This document shows positions 408 to 45,913 of a stretch of 52,561 bases of DNA, in pieces. Numbering within the stretch: the stretch's first letter is position 1; each line of letters begins with the position of its first letter. A program made the position numbers and the translations under genes. The notes beneath the pieces were generated by a model that searched no databases, was not told the origin of the DNA, and saw only the letters and a program-made list of their open reading frames with translations. This DNA is from a virus, in IMG/VR virus record IMGVR_UViG_3300045738_001973, positions 1-52,561 of that record. One strand, written 5' to 3'.

Positions 408-1571
408 TTAAAGGCCTAAGAGCTTGTTGGCTAGGTCTGCTTTGCTGATTCTTTCGTCTTCTCTTATATATTTTGAATACTTCCTGCGCAGCATTGCTTC
501 GGAGGTGTGCCCCATTTGGTCCATGATCCACGACAAATCTAATCCGGCTGTTAATGCTTGCGAGGCGAATGTGTGTCGGCAATTCACTGGGCCGCGAAAC
601 CTTACCTCTGCTTTTGCCAAATGACGTACCCAGAACCCCTGCCTATATAGCTGAATGTCGGTATACGGGCTGCCCGTTCTGGTGTTGATGAATACCGGCC
701 TAAATTGCTCTTTTCGCGTGGTGCGGTTGTCGCGCTGCAGCACGTCTATTGTTATGGGAGCCAAGTGGCCGGTAATTTGATATTGGCTGCGCAGGGCTTC
801 AAGTGCTGGCTTTAGCAAGTCGATTTTGCGTTTAGAGCGCTTGGTTTTGGTGGCTTTGTATTGCCCGGCCACTATGGCGCGTTGCAGTAATGCGTGAGCG
901 TTGTCTAGGTCTACATCATCCCAGCCCAGCGCCATAGATTCAGAAGGCCTTGGGCCGCTCCACATCGAAAACGCCGCAAAGTTAATTTCGCCCTGTCGGC
1001 TGGTTTTGGTTTTTAGAATGGCGTCGATCTCGGCGCGGGTGAACGGGTCTGGGTCTTCGTCGTCTGGCAGCGAAACCTTAATGCCCTCTACCGGGTTAAA
1101 CGCCGTTTTATTGCGCTGGCGGTAAAGGGTAAATACCTGGTTCATTAACGACACAATCTCTTTAATCGATTTGTTGGACAAGTGCTTCAAATCGTTAGCG
1201 ATCCAGTCTTCTACGTGAATAGAGTCTATTTTGTCGGCTTGGCTGTTGCCCCAGCGCGGCCGAATATGGCCATTTACCCAACGGCGGTAATTTAAAATGG
1301 TACTGGGCGCCACCTGTCTGGCTTTAATCTGCAGCCACGTATCTAGCCATACCGCAACCGTATTGCCTTTAAGCTTGGCGCTATTGGGAAAACGACGGGA
1401 ATAGTCGAAAGTACCGGCCTTAATCTCGTGCTTTATTGTGGCTACCAAACCCTCGGCATAGCGCTTATTCTCGGCCGTTGGGTCAATACCCAGCGATTCG
1501 CGGCACTTTTCGCCATTGAAGTAAAAATACACCCGCAGCGTACCGCCGTGGACTTCCCAACCCTTCGCCAT
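408..1571 (-). CDS. int: Phage tyrosine-recombinase integrase
   Basis: This protein catalyses site-specific insertion and excision of the prophage at tRNA-Ser. The 387 residues start with an Arm DNA-binding domain of the DUF3596 type (about 1-60), then a core-binding SAM-like domain (about 70-165) and a C-terminal catalytic domain. Visible catalytic residues are Arg in GPRPSES, Arg in NCRHTFAS, His in MGHTSE and the Tyr in RRKYSKY. The position that is His in the canonical HxxR box is Val here (VNCR), a change also found in other integrases of this Arm type. The gene reads toward attL and its start is ATG at 1571. Repeated GGGACT motifs beside both att cores are possible arm sites. Confidence 0.95.
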   Translation of the reverse strand: MAKGWEVHGGTLRVYFYFNGEKCRESLGIDPTAENKRYAEGLVATIKHEIKAGTFDYSRRFPNSAKLKGNTVAVWLDTWLQIKARQVAPSTILNYRRWVNGHIRPRWGNSQADKIDSIHVEDWIANDLKHLSNKSIKEIVSLMNQVFTLYRQRNKTAFNPVEGIKVSLPDDEDPDPFTRAEIDAILKTKTSRQGEINFAAFSMWSGPRPSESMALGWDDVDLDNAHALLQRAIVAGQYKATKTKRSKRKIDLLKPALEALRSQYQITGHLAPITIDVLQRDNRTTRKEQFRPVFINTRTGSPYTDIQLYRQGFWVRHLAKAEVRFRGPVNCRHTFASQALTAGLDLSWIMDQMGHTSEAMLRRKYSKYIREDERISKADLANKLLGL

Positions 1572-13130: not shown

Positions 13131-13886
13131 ATGATTAGCGAAGAGATCACACGGATCGAAGAGCGGCTTAAGGATTTGGGTTTAACGAAAACGGAATTTG
13201 CAATAGCGCTAGGCGCGCCAGAAGACAATGCCAGCTCCTACTACAACAACTGGCGCCATAGAGACTTACCAAAATCACGACTAAGTGCCGCGGCAGATTT
13301 TTTAAATACCACCATTGAATGGATTACTAGGGGCGAGCGCAAACTAAGTGTGGCTACCGACAGCTGCCCACGGCAAGAAATTGCTATTGAATACACCCGA
13401 CGAATACACGCCGACGGCGGTATTACTGCCTGCGTCACCGTCAATGACCGAAACTTTTTTATTGTTGGCATGCACGAAGACATGGTGCAAGTCACCCTGT
13501 CTATTGTCACCGTGGCGGGCGGCATAAAAGCGGCGGCTATTAAAGAAATGATCGAGCTCGGCGTACTGTCTAGGCGCATCAAGTTAAGCGCTAACGAATA
13601 TGATCGGTTTATCCGGGGCATGGTGTCGATCGATGATTTGTTTAAGGGCGGCCGTGAAAGTTACTGGGGCCGTATAGAAATAATCACCCACGACAGTATT
13701 TACACGCCAGAAGTGAGGGACAGAGGCGGTAATTACGTAGAGCTGCCCAGCCAAATAGGGGTGATATTAGAGCTGTTTAAAACCCAGCAAATCGATTTAG
13801 ACGACTTAATAACCTTAGAACAAATTGCCTGTCGGCTGGCGGCTAAAGCGGATTACATTGCGGCCAAAAATTTAATTTCAAAGTAA
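13131..13886 (+). CDS. Prophage repressor (CI-like) lacking a LexA-type peptidase
   Basis: 251 residues. The N-terminal 65 residues form a helix-turn-helix (LTKTEFAIALGAPEDNASSY). The rest does not show the Ser/Lys peptidase signature of S24 repressors, so classical RecA-stimulated self-cleavage is not expected; induction may instead need an antirepressor, as in P2. By position and divergence from cro it is the lysogenic repressor. No good Shine-Dalgarno sequence precedes ATG 13131, which may keep its level low. Confidence 0.8.
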   Translation: MISEEITRIEERLKDLGLTKTEFAIALGAPEDNASSYYNNWRHRDLPKSRLSAAADFLNTTIEWITRGERKLSVATDSCPRQEIAIEYTRRIHADGGITACVTVNDRNFFIVGMHEDMVQVTLSIVTVAGGIKAAAIKEMIELGVLSRRIKLSANEYDRFIRGMVSIDDLFKGGRESYWGRIEIITHDSIYTPEVRDRGGNYVELPSQIGVILELFKTQQIDLDDLITLEQIACRLAAKADYIAAKNLISK

Positions 13887-13894
13887 ATTTTCGC

Positions 13895-13922
13895 TTGCAA
13901 TAACACTCAATGAGTGTATTAT
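13895..13922 (+). promoter_or_regulatory. Promoter P1 with palindromic operator between -35 and -10
   Basis: A -35-like TTGCAA (13895-13900) and a -10-like TATTAT (13917-13922) are separated by 16 bp. The near-perfect palindrome ACACTCAATGAGTGT (13903-13917) fills the spacer. A repressor bound there would block RNA polymerase. The same element is repeated at 14530-14557. The likeliest regulator is the HTH protein encoded at 14303. Confidence 0.75.
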
Positions 13923-13981
13923 AGGAACTGTAGACAGCAATACCGCTGCTACGAAATCACGAATAGATAGGTGATAAAATG
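13903..13981 (+). repeat. Operator/leader repeat, copy 1
   Basis: 79 bp from the palindrome to the start codon of the 93-residue gene, matched by 14538-14617. The only differences are one substitution and one inserted A. The transcribed leader includes an imperfect hairpin (GTAGACAGC/GCTGCTAC around AATACC) and an AGGTGA ribosome-binding site. Preservation of the whole leader, not just the promoter, suggests that it has a function in RNA too. Confidence 0.9.
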
Positions 13982-14260
13982 ACTACTTACACAATCCCAC
14001 AAAAAATGTCTGGCACTGGCTCAATCCACGACATCGCCAGCGACATGCAAGACCGCGAAATCAAGTTTGGCAAAGGTTGCAAATACGCAGTGGTGCTGTC
14101 CAGCTACTACGGCGGCAAAGGCTACACCACCCACCAAACTGCCGAAGCGGCTGCCCGCGCAAGCCGTAAAAATAAAGACTATTCCCACGCCATTATCGAC
14201 ACAGATGGCAACCGGTACACCACTGACTATGACAATCAGCTGGTAAAGATTACCGAATAA
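13979..14260 (+). CDS. Hypothetical 93-aa protein, first gene of cassette 1
   Basis: A compact protein opening MTTYTIPQKMSGTGSIHDIA, with YYGGKGYTTHQTAEAAA in the middle and a C-terminal strand (AIIDTDGNRYTTDYDN). The function is not recognised. It is expressed from the operator-controlled promoter P1 with SD AGGTGA, directly ahead of the HTH gene. Sharing the control element with the AcrVA2-like locus makes it a reasonable anti-defence candidate, but that is guilt by association only. Confidence 0.7.
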   Translation: MTTYTIPQKMSGTGSIHDIASDMQDREIKFGKGCKYAVVLSSYYGGKGYTTHQTAEAAARASRKNKDYSHAIIDTDGNRYTTDYDNQLVKITE

Positions 14261-14268
14261 ACCACCCC

Positions 14269-14286
14269 GCCGCCCACTAGGGCGGC
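14269..14286 (+). promoter_or_regulatory. GC hairpin ahead of the HTH gene
   Basis: GCCGCCC-ACTA-GGGCGGC forms a 7-bp perfect stem. It lies between the stop of the 93-residue gene and the ATG of the HTH gene. The same hairpin recurs at 14822-14839 ahead of the AcrVA2-like gene. There is no T-run, so it is more likely an mRNA stability, attenuation or translation element than a simple terminator. Confidence 0.65.
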
Positions 14287-14302
14287 AACCACCGAGACCA
14301 CT

Positions 14303-14521
14303 ATGATCACCCAACCCACACCCGAACAAATCAAAGCCGCGCGCACTGCTGCTGGCGACTCGCAGGCCCAGGCGGCTGAGCGTATTTATGCGCCCAGCTA
14401 CCGCACTTGGCAAAATTGGGAGAAAGACGGCGCAGGGTCGCGCGCCATGCCGCTGGCCGCGTGGGAATTGTATTTAATCAAGACAGATCAAACCGATAAA
14501 ATTATTTTTCAAAAAGATTAA
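14303..14521 (+). CDS. Small XRE/HTH regulator, Aca-like candidate
   Basis: 72-residue helix-turn-helix protein. TPEQIKAARTAAGDSQAQAA is followed by RTWQNWEKDG, and the Trp-x-x-Trp-Glu pattern is shared with small autoregulators of plasmids and anti-CRISPR loci. It is transcribed from the operator-bearing promoter P1 and lies in front of a second copy of the same operator that drives the AcrVA2-like gene. It therefore plausibly plays the part of an anti-CRISPR-associated (Aca) repressor, binding ACACTCAATGAGTGT. That pairing is inferred from position. Confidence 0.8.
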   Translation: MITQPTPEQIKAARTAAGDSQAQAAERIYAPSYRTWQNWEKDGAGSRAMPLAAWELYLIKTDQTDKIIFQKD

Positions 14522-14529
14522 GAAAGGGC

Positions 14530-14557
14530 TTGTTTTTACACTCAATGAGTGTATTAT
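14530..14557 (+). promoter_or_regulatory. Promoter P2 with palindromic operator between -35 and -10
   Basis: A -35-like TTGTTT (14530-14535), a 16-bp spacer occupied by ACACTCAATGAGTGT (14538-14552) and a -10-like TATTAT (14552-14557) reproduce the geometry of P1. It should drive the 53-residue gene and the AcrVA2-like gene under the same repressor. Confidence 0.75.
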
Positions 14558-14617
14558 TGGAACTGTAGACAGCAATACCGCTGCTACGAAAATCACGAAT
14601 AGATAGGTGATAAAATG
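14538..14617 (+). repeat. Operator/leader repeat, copy 2
   Basis: 80 bp, about 97% identical to 13903-13981, and ending at the same place relative to the start codon. The hairpin and AGGTGA ribosome-binding site are identical. The repeat stops at the ATG, and the proteins that follow are unrelated. Confidence 0.9.
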
Positions 14618-14776
14618 AAAATTGAAAAAATGTACATGAACATCGAGACCGGATCAGTTGATACCCGTGACGGCTGGGACTACGAGAACGAATCTGGCGA
14701 GACTGTGAACGCGGTTGATCTTGGCGAAGTTGTCGAGGTTAAAAAGGACGACAAAGGCGAGTGGGTCGAAGCATGA
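14615..14776 (+). CDS. Acidic 53-aa protein, first gene of cassette 2
   Basis: Short ORF reading MKIEKMYMNIETGSVDTRDG, then WDYENESGETVNAVDLGEVV and an acidic tail. It has the same leader and AGGTGA ribosome-binding site as the 93-residue gene, which strongly supports translation from 14615. Its size, its acidity and its place directly upstream of an AcrVA2-like gene resemble anti-CRISPR proteins. No family with known activity is recognised. Confidence 0.7.
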   Translation: MKIEKMYMNIETGSVDTRDGWDYENESGETVNAVDLGEVVEVKKDDKGEWVEA

Positions 14777-14821
14777 CCCCAAGCGATAAATTCGAAGGCG
14801 TTTCACACCACTAACCACCTC

Positions 14822-14839
14822 GCCGCCCACCAGGGCGGC
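14822..14839 (+). promoter_or_regulatory. GC hairpin ahead of the AcrVA2-like gene
   Basis: GCCGCCC-ACCA-GGGCGGC is the same 7-bp stem as at 14269-14286, with one loop change. It lies 27 bp before the AcrVA2-like start. Its repetition in the same position of both cassettes argues that it is functional. Confidence 0.65.
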
Positions 14840-14865
14840 AACCCTCCTCACCCAAGGCCACCAAC

Positions 14866-15813
14866 ATGCAGCCCACCGAGCACCTACACGCCCTAGGCCG
14901 TCGCTACCCCAGCGCATGGCAGCAGATTAACGATCTGCGCCGGGATAGGGGCAAAGACATACCAGACTGGCCAGCGTGGTGTTTTTTGCCGATGGGCGGG
15001 TTTTACGCGATTGTCAGTGCGCAGCATCAAACACAGCAGCTTGGTTTGCAGCAGATCCCCGACGTGTCGGCGCTGGCCGCACTGGGTACGTGGCGTTATA
15101 GCCAAGGTATTTACCGCTTTGATTCGCAAGCGCAGCAGGCGCTGGCGAGCACATTACTGCACGGCGAGATGCCGACGGACGTTTTGCTACGCCTGCCGGA
15201 GTGGTGTTTGTACATCGAGACGCCGGATCAGCAGTGGTTTGGCCAGCCGCTGCACGGCTTTTGGTGTCATTTAGAGAGCGACGCTAACACGCAGCGCCGT
15301 GAGTTACGCTTTTTGCTTAACCATGGCGACAGCCTCAGCCCGCAAATTTTGCACTTGGGCGGCTGGACAGTGACCGAGGCAGTAGATAGATACATAAGCG
15401 AGGCAAAACGCCAAGGCCGCGCCGCCGGCATAACGCTACCCGCCGACGCCAGCGAGGCCGTGGAGCACATCAGCGCGCAAATACAGCCGCTACTCGCGAT
15501 GATTTTGTACTTGTGCAGCGACGAGCCAGAGATTACAGACCGCGAGCACCCCGAGCAAAGGCCAAGCCGCCCACGCCCAACACGCACAAAAAAAGGTTGG
15601 AAGCTCTTTGCGCCAAAAGCCCCAAAAATTTGGCAAGTAGGCGAGCAACTCGGCGAGGCGCTGCGCAAAGACCACGGCGCAGACCCCACCGGACGCAGGG
15701 TAAAACCACACCTACGCCGCGCCCACTGGCACGGCTTTTGGAGCGGCCCCCGCGACGGCGAGCGGCGGTTTGGGTATAAATGGCTGCCGCCGACGGTGGT
15801 AGCCGCAGACTAG
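14866..15813 (+). CDS. AcrVA2-like anti-CRISPR protein
   Basis: 315 residues, the length of AcrVA2 (about 322). From memory of that family, conserved blocks are visible: LPEWCLYIETPDQ (about 108), HGFWCHLE (about 130), ILYLCSDEPEITD (about 212), PKIWQVGEQLGEALR (about 250) and RRVKPHLRRAHWHGFWSGP (about 275). AcrVA2 of Moraxella lowers Cas12a production by recognising the nascent Cas12a N-terminus and promoting loss of its mRNA; homologues are widespread on plasmids and phages whose hosts often lack Cas12a, so the target here may differ. The gene follows a 53-residue ORF and a GC hairpin, with AAGG before the ATG. Confidence 0.85.
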   Translation: MQPTEHLHALGRRYPSAWQQINDLRRDRGKDIPDWPAWCFLPMGGFYAIVSAQHQTQQLGLQQIPDVSALAALGTWRYSQGIYRFDSQAQQALASTLLHGEMPTDVLLRLPEWCLYIETPDQQWFGQPLHGFWCHLESDANTQRRELRFLLNHGDSLSPQILHLGGWTVTEAVDRYISEAKRQGRAAGITLPADASEAVEHISAQIQPLLAMILYLCSDEPEITDREHPEQRPSRPRPTRTKKGWKLFAPKAPKIWQVGEQLGEALRKDHGADPTGRRVKPHLRRAHWHGFWSGPRDGERRFGYKWLPPTVVAAD

Positions 15814-41349: not shown

Positions 41350-41379
41350 AGGGTTCGAATCCCTCCCTCACCGCCATTT
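41350..41379 (+). other. attR: attR core of the prophage
   Basis: Exact 30-bp copy of the tRNA-Ser 3' end and TTT found at 304-333. Only the 3' part of the tRNA is present, as expected for the distal copy. The last codons of the serine recombinase gene lie within it on the other strand. Confidence 0.93.
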
Positions 41380-42951
41380 TGATATGAATATGGGCACTTG
41401 CAAAGAGGTGCCCATATTTCTATCTACCCTCGATATAATTGCTGCAAGGGGCAGAAGCCCTCCGCTAAACTTCAGCTTTGTCGGATAGACGACAATCTCT
41501 TTCACAATCGCGACTAATAGCGCTTTAGTAGCCTCATTGTCATCTCCTAGTAGTATATTCCTTGCCGCTTGCGCAAATAGCGAGATATGGCTTTGACCAA
41601 ATTTTTTAATTGGCAACTGCATGCGCTCCTTTAAACTTCTCGCCTCCATCTGAAGCCCATCTTGACTTCGCTTTAACCGACCAATTGTGTCTTTTGCCGT
41701 ACTGTCTAGCTCCAGCTCACCTTTTGCAATGTGCATGATTAGCTTTTCGTATTGATCCGTCACTTTCGAGGATTTAGCCTGAACAGCTAATAGACGCTGC
41801 CGATCCGCCCTAAACACTTCTTTGTGCTTCACTTTTAACGTCTGTACATACTCAGACAGGGCCTCCTCCGGCATTACTAGCTCCGCAATCAATTCTTTAA
41901 CCTTATTTTCTAGCGGTACTTTTGGAAGATTGGGGCACGTACATACGTTAATATTTTCCTTTATTCTTCGAACACATCTGTAATACCAATAATGTCCGCT
42001 TTTTCCGGAAGATAAGACAAGGTTTTTCCTACAGGAAGAACATTTAAGTAAGCCGGTCAAAATAGAGGGGCTACGGATTCCTTTTTCTTCTGTATTTTTT
42101 TGGGGGGCTCGCTGTTTAAGCTCCGCCTGAACTCTATTGAATACTTCCACATCCAAAATTTGAGGATTTTTATAATATATGGGCTTATAGTCCGCTCGTT
42201 TAATACGGCGATCAGCTGCGTATTCTCGTTGAGCGATGTAAATTGGGTCGGTGAGCACTCTATGAACCTTCATTGTCGTCCAATTCGAAACGTTTGCAGG
42301 GATCCCTGAAGTATTAAGGTAAGTCGCAATTTTTTTAACACCGTAGGGCCGCCCACAATTACCTTCAATTGCTAATCGGTAGATATCCCTTACAATTTCG
42401 GCTTGCTCACTGTTAACTACCAAGATTTTTTTGCTTTTATCCGAGTCTGGCGCAGGAACGGATTTGTACCCATAGGGGACTGCACCACCGACAAAGAAAC
42501 CTTTCTCTACCGCCTCAGCTTTACGATCTGAAACGACTTTACTATTTTGTCGGCTTTGATGCTCATTAACTGTCCCTAATAAACTTTTAACCAAATGCGC
42601 TAATGCGGGATCTGTGGGAAATGATTCCGTCACTGAAAAAAATTCAAAACCTAGGTCAGCAATTAAGCTGTCGGAAACTAACCGCTTCTGCTCATTCCGC
42701 GCGAAGCGACTAAGGGAATAGACGACTACTCCCTGGTACTCAACATCACTAGACTGAATATCACTAAGCATTTGTTCCAGCGCTGGTCGTTTCCCCTTGA
42801 AGGCTGAATATCCACCCTCAACATAATGCTTGACCACTACATGATCGTTTTGCGAAGCCCATTTTGTAATAGCCAATTTCTGGCCATCTAGGGAGTCGCT
42901 CTCTGTTGCCTGACGAGAAGTAGAAACCCTAATATAAGCTGCTAATTTCAT
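41368..42951 (-). CDS. Large serine recombinase
   Basis: 527 residues. The N-terminal resolvase domain opens MKLAAYIRVSTSRQATESDS with the nucleophile Ser10; a recombinase domain follows (about 165-290; GVKKIATYLNTSGIPANVSN), then a zinc beta-ribbon (CSSC, later CTCP) and a coiled coil near 380-450. It would integrate or excise an element at its own att site. The stop codon lies in the tRNA-Ser attR core, so its last residues (SKWR) are templated by the tRNA end. The small gene just upstream overlaps its transcription unit. Confidence 0.93.
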   Translation of the reverse strand: MKLAAYIRVSTSRQATESDSLDGQKLAITKWASQNDHVVVKHYVEGGYSAFKGKRPALEQMLSDIQSSDVEYQGVVVYSLSRFARNEQKRLVSDSLIADLGFEFFSVTESFPTDPALAHLVKSLLGTVNEHQSRQNSKVVSDRKAEAVEKGFFVGGAVPYGYKSVPAPDSDKSKKILVVNSEQAEIVRDIYRLAIEGNCGRPYGVKKIATYLNTSGIPANVSNWTTMKVHRVLTDPIYIAQREYAADRRIKRADYKPIYYKNPQILDVEVFNRVQAELKQRAPQKNTEEKGIRSPSILTGLLKCSSCRKNLVLSSGKSGHYWYYRCVRRIKENINVCTCPNLPKVPLENKVKELIAELVMPEEALSEYVQTLKVKHKEVFRADRQRLLAVQAKSSKVTDQYEKLIMHIAKGELELDSTAKDTIGRLKRSQDGLQMEARSLKERMQLPIKKFGQSHISLFAQAARNILLGDDNEATKALLVAIVKEIVVYPTKLKFSGGLLPLAAIISRVDRNMGTSLQVPIFISKWR

Positions 42952-44380: not shown

Positions 44381-45913
44381 CTATACGAGGGACACATTCC
44401 AGGGTAGCAATGCCTGCAATTCGTCATCACTGGATATGCTTGGCAGTCTTGCAAACACCTCACGCAAATACGCGTAAGGTTCAAGGCCATTCGCTTTCGC
44501 GGTTTCGATCAAGCTATAAATAGCGGCGCTGGCGTGGGCACCTCTGGGCGTCGCGCTGAACAGCCAATTTTTGCGGCCAATAACGAAGGGGCGGATGGCG
44601 TTCTCCGCAAGGTTATTGTCGATGTTGACGTCGCCGTCTTCTGTGTAGGCTACGAGCTTTTCCCAGTTCTTATTGAGATAACCCAGCGCCGTACCGAGTA
44701 GGCCTTTGGGCAAGGTGCTGTGTAGTGTTTTGTCCAGCCACTCCCTAAGGGCGCTGAAGATCGGAACACTTTTCTCTTGGCGTAGCTGGCGGCGAGTTTC
44801 GCTGCTCGCGTCTTTCGCCTGCTTTTCGATGGCGTACAGCTTGGCAATATAACTGATCGCCACATCGGCTTTGCCGATGCGGGTAGTCTTTTTGTCTTTA
44901 GATGTCCCTGCCTTTTGAGCATCAACGAATTTACGGCGTGCGTGTGCCCAGCACCCCACATGGCTAATGTCGTCTTTGCGTCCAACGGCATGGTAGCCCG
45001 CATAGTCATCGGTTTGCAGGTAACCACTAAAGTCCTTTAGTAATTTTTCCGCCACGCTGCCAGCGCGGCTCGGCGCATAATCATATAACACGATGGAGTG
45101 ATCGGGGGCGCCACTGCGCCTGACCCACATATACGATTGGCTACTTGCGGGCCTGTCCGGTTCGTTTAGCACCTGAAGCGGCGTTTCGTCGCACTGGATG
45201 ATTTTGCCGCTGCGAAGTTCGCTATCAAGCTGGGCGATAAGTGGCGCGATCAATTCACCGCTGCGCATCATCCAATTGGCGAGGGTGTTGCGGGGGATAT
45301 CAATCTCCATCCGTTTGAAGATGGCTTCTTGGCGGTGCAGTGGCAGCGCATCATGGTATTTCGCGGTAGCGATATACGCCAGTAGGCCTGCACTCGCATT
45401 GCTTTTTGGAATGGGCTGCGCCGGTAATGCGGCGGTACGTACCGTCGATTCACACGCTTTGCAGGCGTATTTCAGGCGGGCGTGTACTAAGACGTGGACG
45501 GTTGCAGGAATGATATCCAGCTGCTCGCTGGTGTCTTCGCCAATATGCGTTAACGCACAACCGCATTCACAGACTTTGTCGGCATCAGCCAGATCATGTT
45601 CGATACGAACGTGCGGCAAGTCAGCGGGTAACGATTTACGACCACGGGATTTGCGACGCTCATACTGGATTGTTTCGGTTTCGGCGTCATCCGTGTTTTC
45701 GTCAAGGTCGTCTTCGGGAACAGGCTCAGCGGCTTCGGCTTCATTAAACAGCTCGGCCTGCCCATCCGACTTCTCGCTGCTGGCCGCAAAGCGTTTATGC
45801 CTGAGTAAACGCACTTGTGCTTCGAGTAACGAGATGCGTTTATCCTTCTCCAAAAGCAAAGCTTTGAGGCTGTGGATATCGTCAGAAGAAGGGGTTGATG
45901 GTCGCGTCGTCAT
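44381..45913 (-). CDS. tnpC: IS66 transposase TnpC
   Basis: 510 residues. An N-terminal leucine-zipper helix (LLLEKDKRISLLEAQVRLLR), a zinc-finger region (CECGCALT, later CKACEST) and a DDE catalytic domain with IIQCDETPLQV, LQTDDYAGYH and a final Glu in NNLAENAIRPFVIGRKNW. It catalyses transposition of the element. Confidence 0.97.
   Translation of the reverse strand: MTTRPSTPSSDDIHSLKALLLEKDKRISLLEAQVRLLRHKRFAASSEKSDGQAELFNEAEAAEPVPEDDLDENTDDAETETIQYERRKSRGRKSLPADLPHVRIEHDLADADKVCECGCALTHIGEDTSEQLDIIPATVHVLVHARLKYACKACESTVRTAALPAQPIPKSNASAGLLAYIATAKYHDALPLHRQEAIFKRMEIDIPRNTLANWMMRSGELIAPLIAQLDSELRSGKIIQCDETPLQVLNEPDRPASSQSYMWVRRSGAPDHSIVLYDYAPSRAGSVAEKLLKDFSGYLQTDDYAGYHAVGRKDDISHVGCWAHARRKFVDAQKAGTSKDKKTTRIGKADVAISYIAKLYAIEKQAKDASSETRRQLRQEKSVPIFSALREWLDKTLHSTLPKGLLGTALGYLNKNWEKLVAYTEDGDVNIDNNLAENAIRPFVIGRKNWLFSATPRGAHASAAIYSLIETAKANGLEPYAYLREVFARLPSISSDDELQALLPWNVSLV

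What the first reader, a model, noticed from the sequence alone, without database searches (positions are those of the whole stretch)
13895..14866. Duplicated operator-leader-ORF-hairpin cassettes feeding an HTH gene and the Acr-like gene
Two tandem units have the same order: promoter with ACACTCAATGAGTGT between -35 and -10, a leader about 97% identical over roughly 79 bp, a small ORF, a GCCGCCC hairpin, then a second gene. The proteins are unrelated, so only the control parts are duplicated. The leader RNA can form its own hairpin. This suggests a plug-in expression slot under one repressor. Known Aca proteins (Aca2) bind both operator DNA and leader RNA, and the same dual mode could apply here.
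Basis: partly seen in the sequence, partly recalled or inferred. Interest (0 to 1): 0.82.

Follow-up and report, generated by a model that had tools for sequence, protein, structure and literature searches.

The report
Reused repressible promoter-leader in anti-CRISPR loci
A phage uses two copies of the same switchable promoter and structured RNA leader to run two different small gene sets, one encoding the likely switch protein (a relative of the repressor Aca10) and one a relative of the anti-CRISPR AcrVA2, and at least five other AcrVA2-bearing loci show the same doubled cassette with other switch sequences and other genes.

Summary
The repeat is real. Two units (13895-14521 and 14530-15813) share promoter, palindrome, leader and a later GCCGCCC hairpin, but encode unrelated first proteins.

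The 72-aa HTH protein is a homologue of the repressor Aca10 (PDB 7XI5, E=3e-9). Its palindrome TACACTCAATGAGTGTA matches the EMSA-proven Aca10 site at 15 of 17 positions. Palindromes of the form N6-CA-W-TG-N6 occur beside Aca10-like genes 28 times against 0.6 expected.

The 315-aa gene is a distant AcrVA2 homologue (7CI1, E=4e-23).

The leader carries a 5-bp hairpin that buries the Shine-Dalgarno. It recurs in other AcrVA2-bearing contigs, some found through leader DNA alone. Arms covary (98.8% paired, 0/500 shuffles). No Rfam family matches.

Six AcrVA2-bearing loci carry the promoter-leader cassette twice before unrelated ORFs, each locus with its own palindrome. So 'plug-in slot under one repressor' is supported in architecture.

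The proposed Aca2-like RNA binding by the HTH protein is not supported: the same RNA hairpin occurs with other operators and in five contigs without a detectable Aca10 homologue.

Most likely mechanism: Aca10-type repression of both promoters, plus repressor-independent translational tuning by the leader. Nothing has been tested at the bench.

The parts
13895..13922 (+). Promoter 1: -35 TTGCAA (13895-13900), N16, -10 TATTAT (13917-13922), with operator AACACTCAATGAGTGTA (13902-13918) in the spacer
   Evidence: same layout as the P. citronellolis aca10 operon, TTGCAA-N16-TATTCT (PMC9410881)
13929..13953 (+). Leader hairpin 1, copy 1 (GTAG-a-CAGC / GCTG-CTAC), at or very near the predicted 5' end of the mRNA
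   Evidence: compensatory differences against G001 and G002
13956..13975 (+). Leader hairpin 2, copy 1: ATCAC-gaatagatag-GTGAT, with the Shine-Dalgarno AGGTGA in the 3' arm and loop edge
   Evidence: pair probabilities 0.89-0.98
13979..14260 (+). Small ORF of 93 aa, unknown function; a homologue is the gene directly before the AcrVA2 homologue in L012/L013
   Evidence: no Pfam, NCBIfam or PADLOC family; no fold match
14269..14286 (+). Intercistronic hairpin GCCGCCC-acta-GGGCGGC, no T-run
   Evidence: same arms between genes 1 and 2 in G003
14303..14521 (+). HTH protein of 72 aa, Aca10 homologue, predicted repressor of both promoters
   Evidence: PMC9410881
14530..14557 (+). Promoter 2: weak -35 TTGTTT, N16, -10 TATTAT, with operator TACACTCAATGAGTGTA (14537-14553)
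14564..14588 (+). Leader hairpin 1, copy 2
14592..14611 (+). Leader hairpin 2, copy 2 (Shine-Dalgarno sequestering)
14615..14776 (+). Small ORF of 53 aa, unknown function; homologous domain directly precedes an Aca10-like gene in L079/L080
14822..14839 (+). Intercistronic hairpin GCCGCCC-acca-GGGCGGC
14866..15813 (+). AcrVA2 homologue of 315 aa (phrog_6160)

Best explanation
This is an acr-aca type locus split into two parallel operons. The 72-aa Aca10 homologue binds as a dimer to the 17-bp palindrome in the spacer of both promoters. It represses its own operon (93-aa gene, then the aca10-like gene) and, through the second copy of the same cassette, the operon of the 53-aa gene and the acrVA2-like gene. 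Early after infection, with no repressor present, both promoters fire; as repressor accumulates both shut down together. Each mRNA begins with a hairpin at or near its 5' end, which may protect or insulate it, followed by a small hairpin that partly buries the Shine-Dalgarno and so tunes translation of the first gene whatever ORF follows. The promoter-operator-leader block is thus a modular 5' part, duplicated and reused before unrelated genes. Shown by sequence: homologies, duplication, operator match, covarying Shine-Dalgarno hairpin, recurrence. Inferred: repression, timing, translational effect, anti-defence function of the cargo.
For: Aca10 homology by sequence to 7XI5; the R44, Q22, Q37 and R34 residues discussed in PMC9410881 are kept as R47, Q21, Q37 and R34. 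The operator differs from the EMSA-minimal Aca10 site only at one symmetric position per half-site of the 17-bp core, besides the A/T centre. TACGCTCAWTGAGCGTA occurs without mismatch 5' of Aca10-like genes in about 16 loci; N6-CAWTG-N6 palindromes 28 against 0.6 expected, with recognition-helix residues tending to change with the half-site. AcrVA2 homology. Aca10-like plus AcrVA2 genes side by side in L028, L049, L053/L056 and plasmid CP157006. Doubled cassette in six AcrVA2-bearing loci with different palindromes and unrelated ORFs. Shine-Dalgarno hairpin: 98.8% of cells paired, 7 cells with changes on both sides, covariation score 0.297 against 0.083, 0/500 shuffles, no slid version close; leader-pattern matches in contigs with AcrVA2 pair 8/8 at the free position against 3/12 in the contigs without AcrVA2.
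Against: No expression or binding data. The window HTH protein has a 3-residue insertion in the loop before the critical arginine and is only about half identical to Aca10. Promoter 2 has a poor -35. The AcrVA2 match is distant (the matched stretch starts at residue 67) and no Cas12a host is known. The small-hairpin argument rests on few phages: only two of five pairs show compensatory change, several instances were found with a pattern that fixed the loop and most of the stem, and one copy (L028 copy 1) keeps only 3 of 5 pairs. Stem changes are confounded with the change between the Shine-Dalgarno variants AGGTGAT and AGGAGAT, though the opposite arm follows each variant.
Confidence: 0.7

Rival explanations
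1. Aca2-like dual control: the Aca10-like protein represses the promoters as DNA and also binds the leader hairpins to block the ribosome.
For: Precedent for Aca2 (own knowledge; that paper is not in the held library). Structured leader with a hairpin over the Shine-Dalgarno.
Against: The same hairpin occurs with unrelated operators and in five contigs without a detectable Aca10-like gene; where the HTH protein and its operator change (L049 against the window) the hairpin does not; no operator half-site in the leader RNA.
Confidence: 0.1
2. The leader is only a strong, structurally insulated 5' UTR (5' hairpin for stability, standard Shine-Dalgarno); the small hairpin is a by-product of Shine-Dalgarno variants and shared ancestry, with no regulatory role. 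Duplication is recent and neutral, kept by recombination.
For: Hairpin 1 lies at or near the predicted transcript start, as in known mRNA-stabilising stem-loops (own knowledge); short stem; few independent lineages.
Against: The 5' arm, which is not part of the Shine-Dalgarno, follows the Shine-Dalgarno variant (ATCAC/GTGAT, ATCTC/GAGAT, TTCAC/GTGAA). The doubled cassette recurs in six loci with different operators, which one neutral duplication does not explain.
Confidence: 0.25
3. Chance or assembly artefact (collapsed repeat, chimaera).
For: Metagenome-type virus record.
Against: The copies differ at several positions and flank different genes; the same layout occurs in independent records, including an isolate genome (L028), and as a single copy on a complete plasmid.
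Confidence: 0.01

Closest known systems
Aca10 and the acrIC7-acrIC6-aca10 operon of Pseudomonas citronellolis (PMC9410881)
   Same: Repressor family, operator core, TTGCAA-N16 promoter with the palindrome in the spacer, small genes before the aca gene
   Different: Here two promoters share the operator, the acr-like gene sits in the second operon with another small ORF, and a Shine-Dalgarno hairpin leader is present
AcrVA2 of Moraxella bovoculi (7CI1; PMC13131331)
   Same: Sequence homology over residues 67-312, similar length
   Different: Distant; no Cas12a context known; embedded in a doubled Aca10-type control cassette
Aca2, DNA- and RNA-binding autorepressor (own knowledge)
   Same: HTH autorepressor of an acr operon, structured leader near the ribosome site
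   Different: Different Aca family; the leader element here is not tied to the repressor
Other Aca families with inverted repeats in core promoters (PMC9410906)
   Same: One or two inverted repeats in or beside the core promoter, constitutive promoter, repression by Aca
   Different: Second repeats reported there lie in the same promoter region; here the whole promoter-leader is duplicated before a second operon

Membership tests
Aca10 family | Sequence homology to Aca10 over the HTH domain | tested here: met
   7XI5, E=3.1e-9, residues 4-62; 51% identity in the small alignment
Aca10 family | DNA-contact residues Q22, R34, Q37 and critical R44 | tested here: met
   Q21, R34, Q37, R47 in the alignment; numbering from PMC9410881
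Aca10 family | Palindromic operator ATACGCTCATTGAGCGTAT-like, in the promoter spacer | tested here: met
   TACACTCAATGAGTGTA in promoter 2 and AACACTCAATGAGTGTA in promoter 1
Aca10 family | Dimer that binds DNA and represses | not testable with these tools
   needs EMSA and reporters
acr-aca operon | Aca gene next to a verified anti-CRISPR gene under a shared repressed promoter | tested here: inconclusive
   The acr-like gene is an unverified AcrVA2 homologue and lies in a second operon with the same operator
AcrVA2 | Homology to AcrVA2 | tested here: met
   7CI1, E=3.6e-23; phrog_6160 E=1.7e-63
AcrVA2 | Lowers Cas12a mRNA through its nascent N-terminus | not testable with these tools
   function described in PMC13131331; not assayed here
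Aca2-like RNA-binding control | Leader RNA bound by the cognate Aca | tested here: inconclusive
   Indirect evidence against: leader shared across different operators and contigs without Aca10
Known Rfam leader or riboswitch | Match to an Rfam 15 family | tested here: not met
   No match up to E=1 in 13700-15000

The most novel reading that the evidence does not exclude
The Shine-Dalgarno hairpin leader is an undescribed RNA control element of AcrVA2-type loci, recognised by a trans-acting factor (the conserved GANNNGATAG loop being the contact) that sets translation of every cassette in the locus independently of the transcriptional repressor; phages build new operons by copying this promoter-leader part in front of new anti-defence genes.
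Probability: 0.25. Interest if true: 0.8.

Novelty: new variant of a known kind. Interest (0 to 1): 0.62.

Why it matters
It links the Aca10 repressor family to AcrVA2-like genes in several independent contexts, gives a short family rule for Aca10-type operators (CA-W-TG core with variable half-sites), and shows a recurring way in which mobile elements add accessory genes under one control part: copying the promoter-leader, not the gene. The leader (covariance model of 33 positions, no unexpected match in 453 kb) is a DNA-level handle for finding AcrVA2-type loci and their unknown small genes, which are candidates for anti-defence tests.

Tried and rejected
Exact operator plus spacer in viral contigs: no match. 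BLAST of unit 1 in phage records: none. Rfam: none for the leaders. Leader pattern in 369 genomes of the Azoarcus class: none, so the element is rare. GCCGCCC hairpin as terminator: rejected, no T-run on the coding strand. The M23 peptidase hint for the 53-aa protein (E=0.02) and the Xer-activation-factor hint for the HTH protein (24 bits, cut-off 70) were rejected as below cut-off. The predicted fold of the 93-aa protein (pLDDT 72) has no PDB match at E<=0.001. Major capsid search in the related contigs: no match, so the locus appears to sit in different backgrounds; but no positive control lay in that search.

Full report
OBSERVATION. The two units are present as described. The palindrome ACACTCAATGAGTGT occurs exactly twice in the 52,561-base record. 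The last 90 bases before the two start codons match at 81 of 91 aligned columns; further upstream the similarity falls to background, and the encoded 93- and 53-aa proteins are unrelated. So the control part alone is duplicated. The leader RNA folds into two hairpins far better than shuffles.

WHAT THE GENES ARE. The 72-aa protein matches the solved repressor Aca10 (7XI5, E=3e-9; the identity of 7XI5 is from PMC9410881). Residues shown there to matter for DNA binding (Q22, Q37, R44) and R34 are kept. The published minimal Aca10 site is ATACGCTCATTGAGCGTAT; the window site TACACTCA-A-TGAGTGTA differs in the 17-bp core only at the symmetric fourth base (the A/T centre is strand-equivalent). The 315-aa protein matches AcrVA2 (7CI1, E=4e-23) and phrog_6160. 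The 93- and 53-aa proteins have relatives but no named family.

OPERATOR FAMILY. Among 96 fetched loci with an Aca10-like gene, about 16 carry TACGCTCAWTGAGCGTA with no mismatch, always 5' of the gene. A general scan for N6-CA-W-TG-N6 palindromes gave 28 sites against 0.6 in shuffles. The half-site tends to change with the residues before the conserved tryptophan of the recognition helix: mostly LRxWQQ with CGCTCA; LLAWQR with TATCCA; MTAWQK with CAGACA; PRNWQQ with CGAACA. This supports that the window protein reads the window palindrome.

RECURRENCE. AcrVA2 relatives in viral contigs and the Aca10-like set were checked for neighbours. Aca10-like and AcrVA2-like genes lie together in L028 (Azoarcus indigens), L049 and L053/L056, and on the Methylomonas plasmid CP157006. 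Six AcrVA2-bearing loci, the window included, contain the promoter-palindrome-leader block twice, 70-82 of about 90 columns identical within a locus, in front of unrelated ORFs, each locus with its own palindrome: window, G002 (L049), L028, G007 (L012), G001 (L133) and G004 (L149). In L028 the order of the units is the same as in the window; in G002 the AcrVA2 unit comes first. In G001 the cassettes lie about 4.5 kb from the AcrVA2 gene.

THE LEADER. The second hairpin, ATCAC-GAATAGATAG-GTGAT, buries much of the Shine-Dalgarno. A pattern for it in IMG/VR gave 19 stretches; rough arithmetic says chance alone could give a similar number, so matches were sorted by an outside criterion. Contigs with an AcrVA2 homologue (five independent ones) have all eight exact matches properly paired and 3-5 bases before the ATG of an ORF. 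The twelve others have no AcrVA2 homologue and pair in only 3 of 12 (P=0.001 by match, 0.03 by distinct contig). Three of the AcrVA2-bearing records (G001, G004, G008) and the Methylomonas plasmid were reached through leader DNA alone. On 16 instances 98.8% of cells pair, with changes on both sides at two pairs and no shuffle reaching the observed score. The covariance model finds only these loci among 453 kb, at E<=7e-5, and nothing else up to E=1. Hairpin 1 also shows compensatory differences between G001 copies, G002 and the window (arms were defined by hand). More distant AcrVA2 loci (L054, L055, L057-L061) and L056 lack the element.

WHO READS THE LEADER. The hairpin is unchanged where the operator and HTH protein differ, and it is present in five contigs without any detected Aca10-like gene (G001, G003, G004, G007, G008). 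The leader has no operator half-site. An Aca2-like RNA role of this HTH protein is therefore not supported, though only a binding test can exclude it.

MECHANISM. Shown: homologies, duplication, operator match, recurrence, covariation. Inferred: joint repression of both operons by the Aca10-like protein; Shine-Dalgarno masking that tunes translation; possible 5'-end protection by hairpin 1; anti-defence role of the cargo. The GCCGCCC hairpins between genes lack T-runs; an identical-armed hairpin sits between genes 1 and 2 in G003. Their role is open (RNA processing or partial attenuation).

LIMITS. Few independent phages; several instances were found with a pattern that fixes most of the stem and loop; the record is a virus contig with no known host, and some compared contigs may be fragments, so absence of an Aca10-like gene in them is not proof; nothing was tested at the bench. 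Papers on Aca2 RNA binding and on AcrVA2 mRNA decay are not in the held library; the first is cited from own knowledge, the second through the review PMC13131331.

Noticed in passing
L020, L032, L042, L096, L012, L056 leaders: Another recurrent leader hairpin, GCCTC-N6-9-GGGGC, lies just 5' of the Shine-Dalgarno of first genes in Aca10- and AcrVA2-type loci.
   Followed up: partly
L023, L025-L027, L029-L031: Aca10-like genes in Thiobacillus-type and related genomes share one perfect operator 143-149 bases before the HTH match, as in simple autoregulation.
   Followed up: no
L068, L070, L079: The 53-aa protein also occurs as the C-terminal part of longer ORFs, once directly before an Aca10-like gene.
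   Followed up: partly
window 408-1571 (-), 41368-42951 (-), 44381-45913 (-): P2-like element with a phrog_1 integrase, a second integrase with DNA-invertase similarity, and a transposase in the same record.
   Followed up: no
L003 665-840: A relative of the HTH gene is preceded by three imperfect TACAC..GGTGTA repeats.
   Followed up: no
L139 2150 (G001 34466): A third copy of the Shine-Dalgarno hairpin leader lies far from the AcrVA2 gene with a different palindrome, before a 142-aa ORF.
   Followed up: partly
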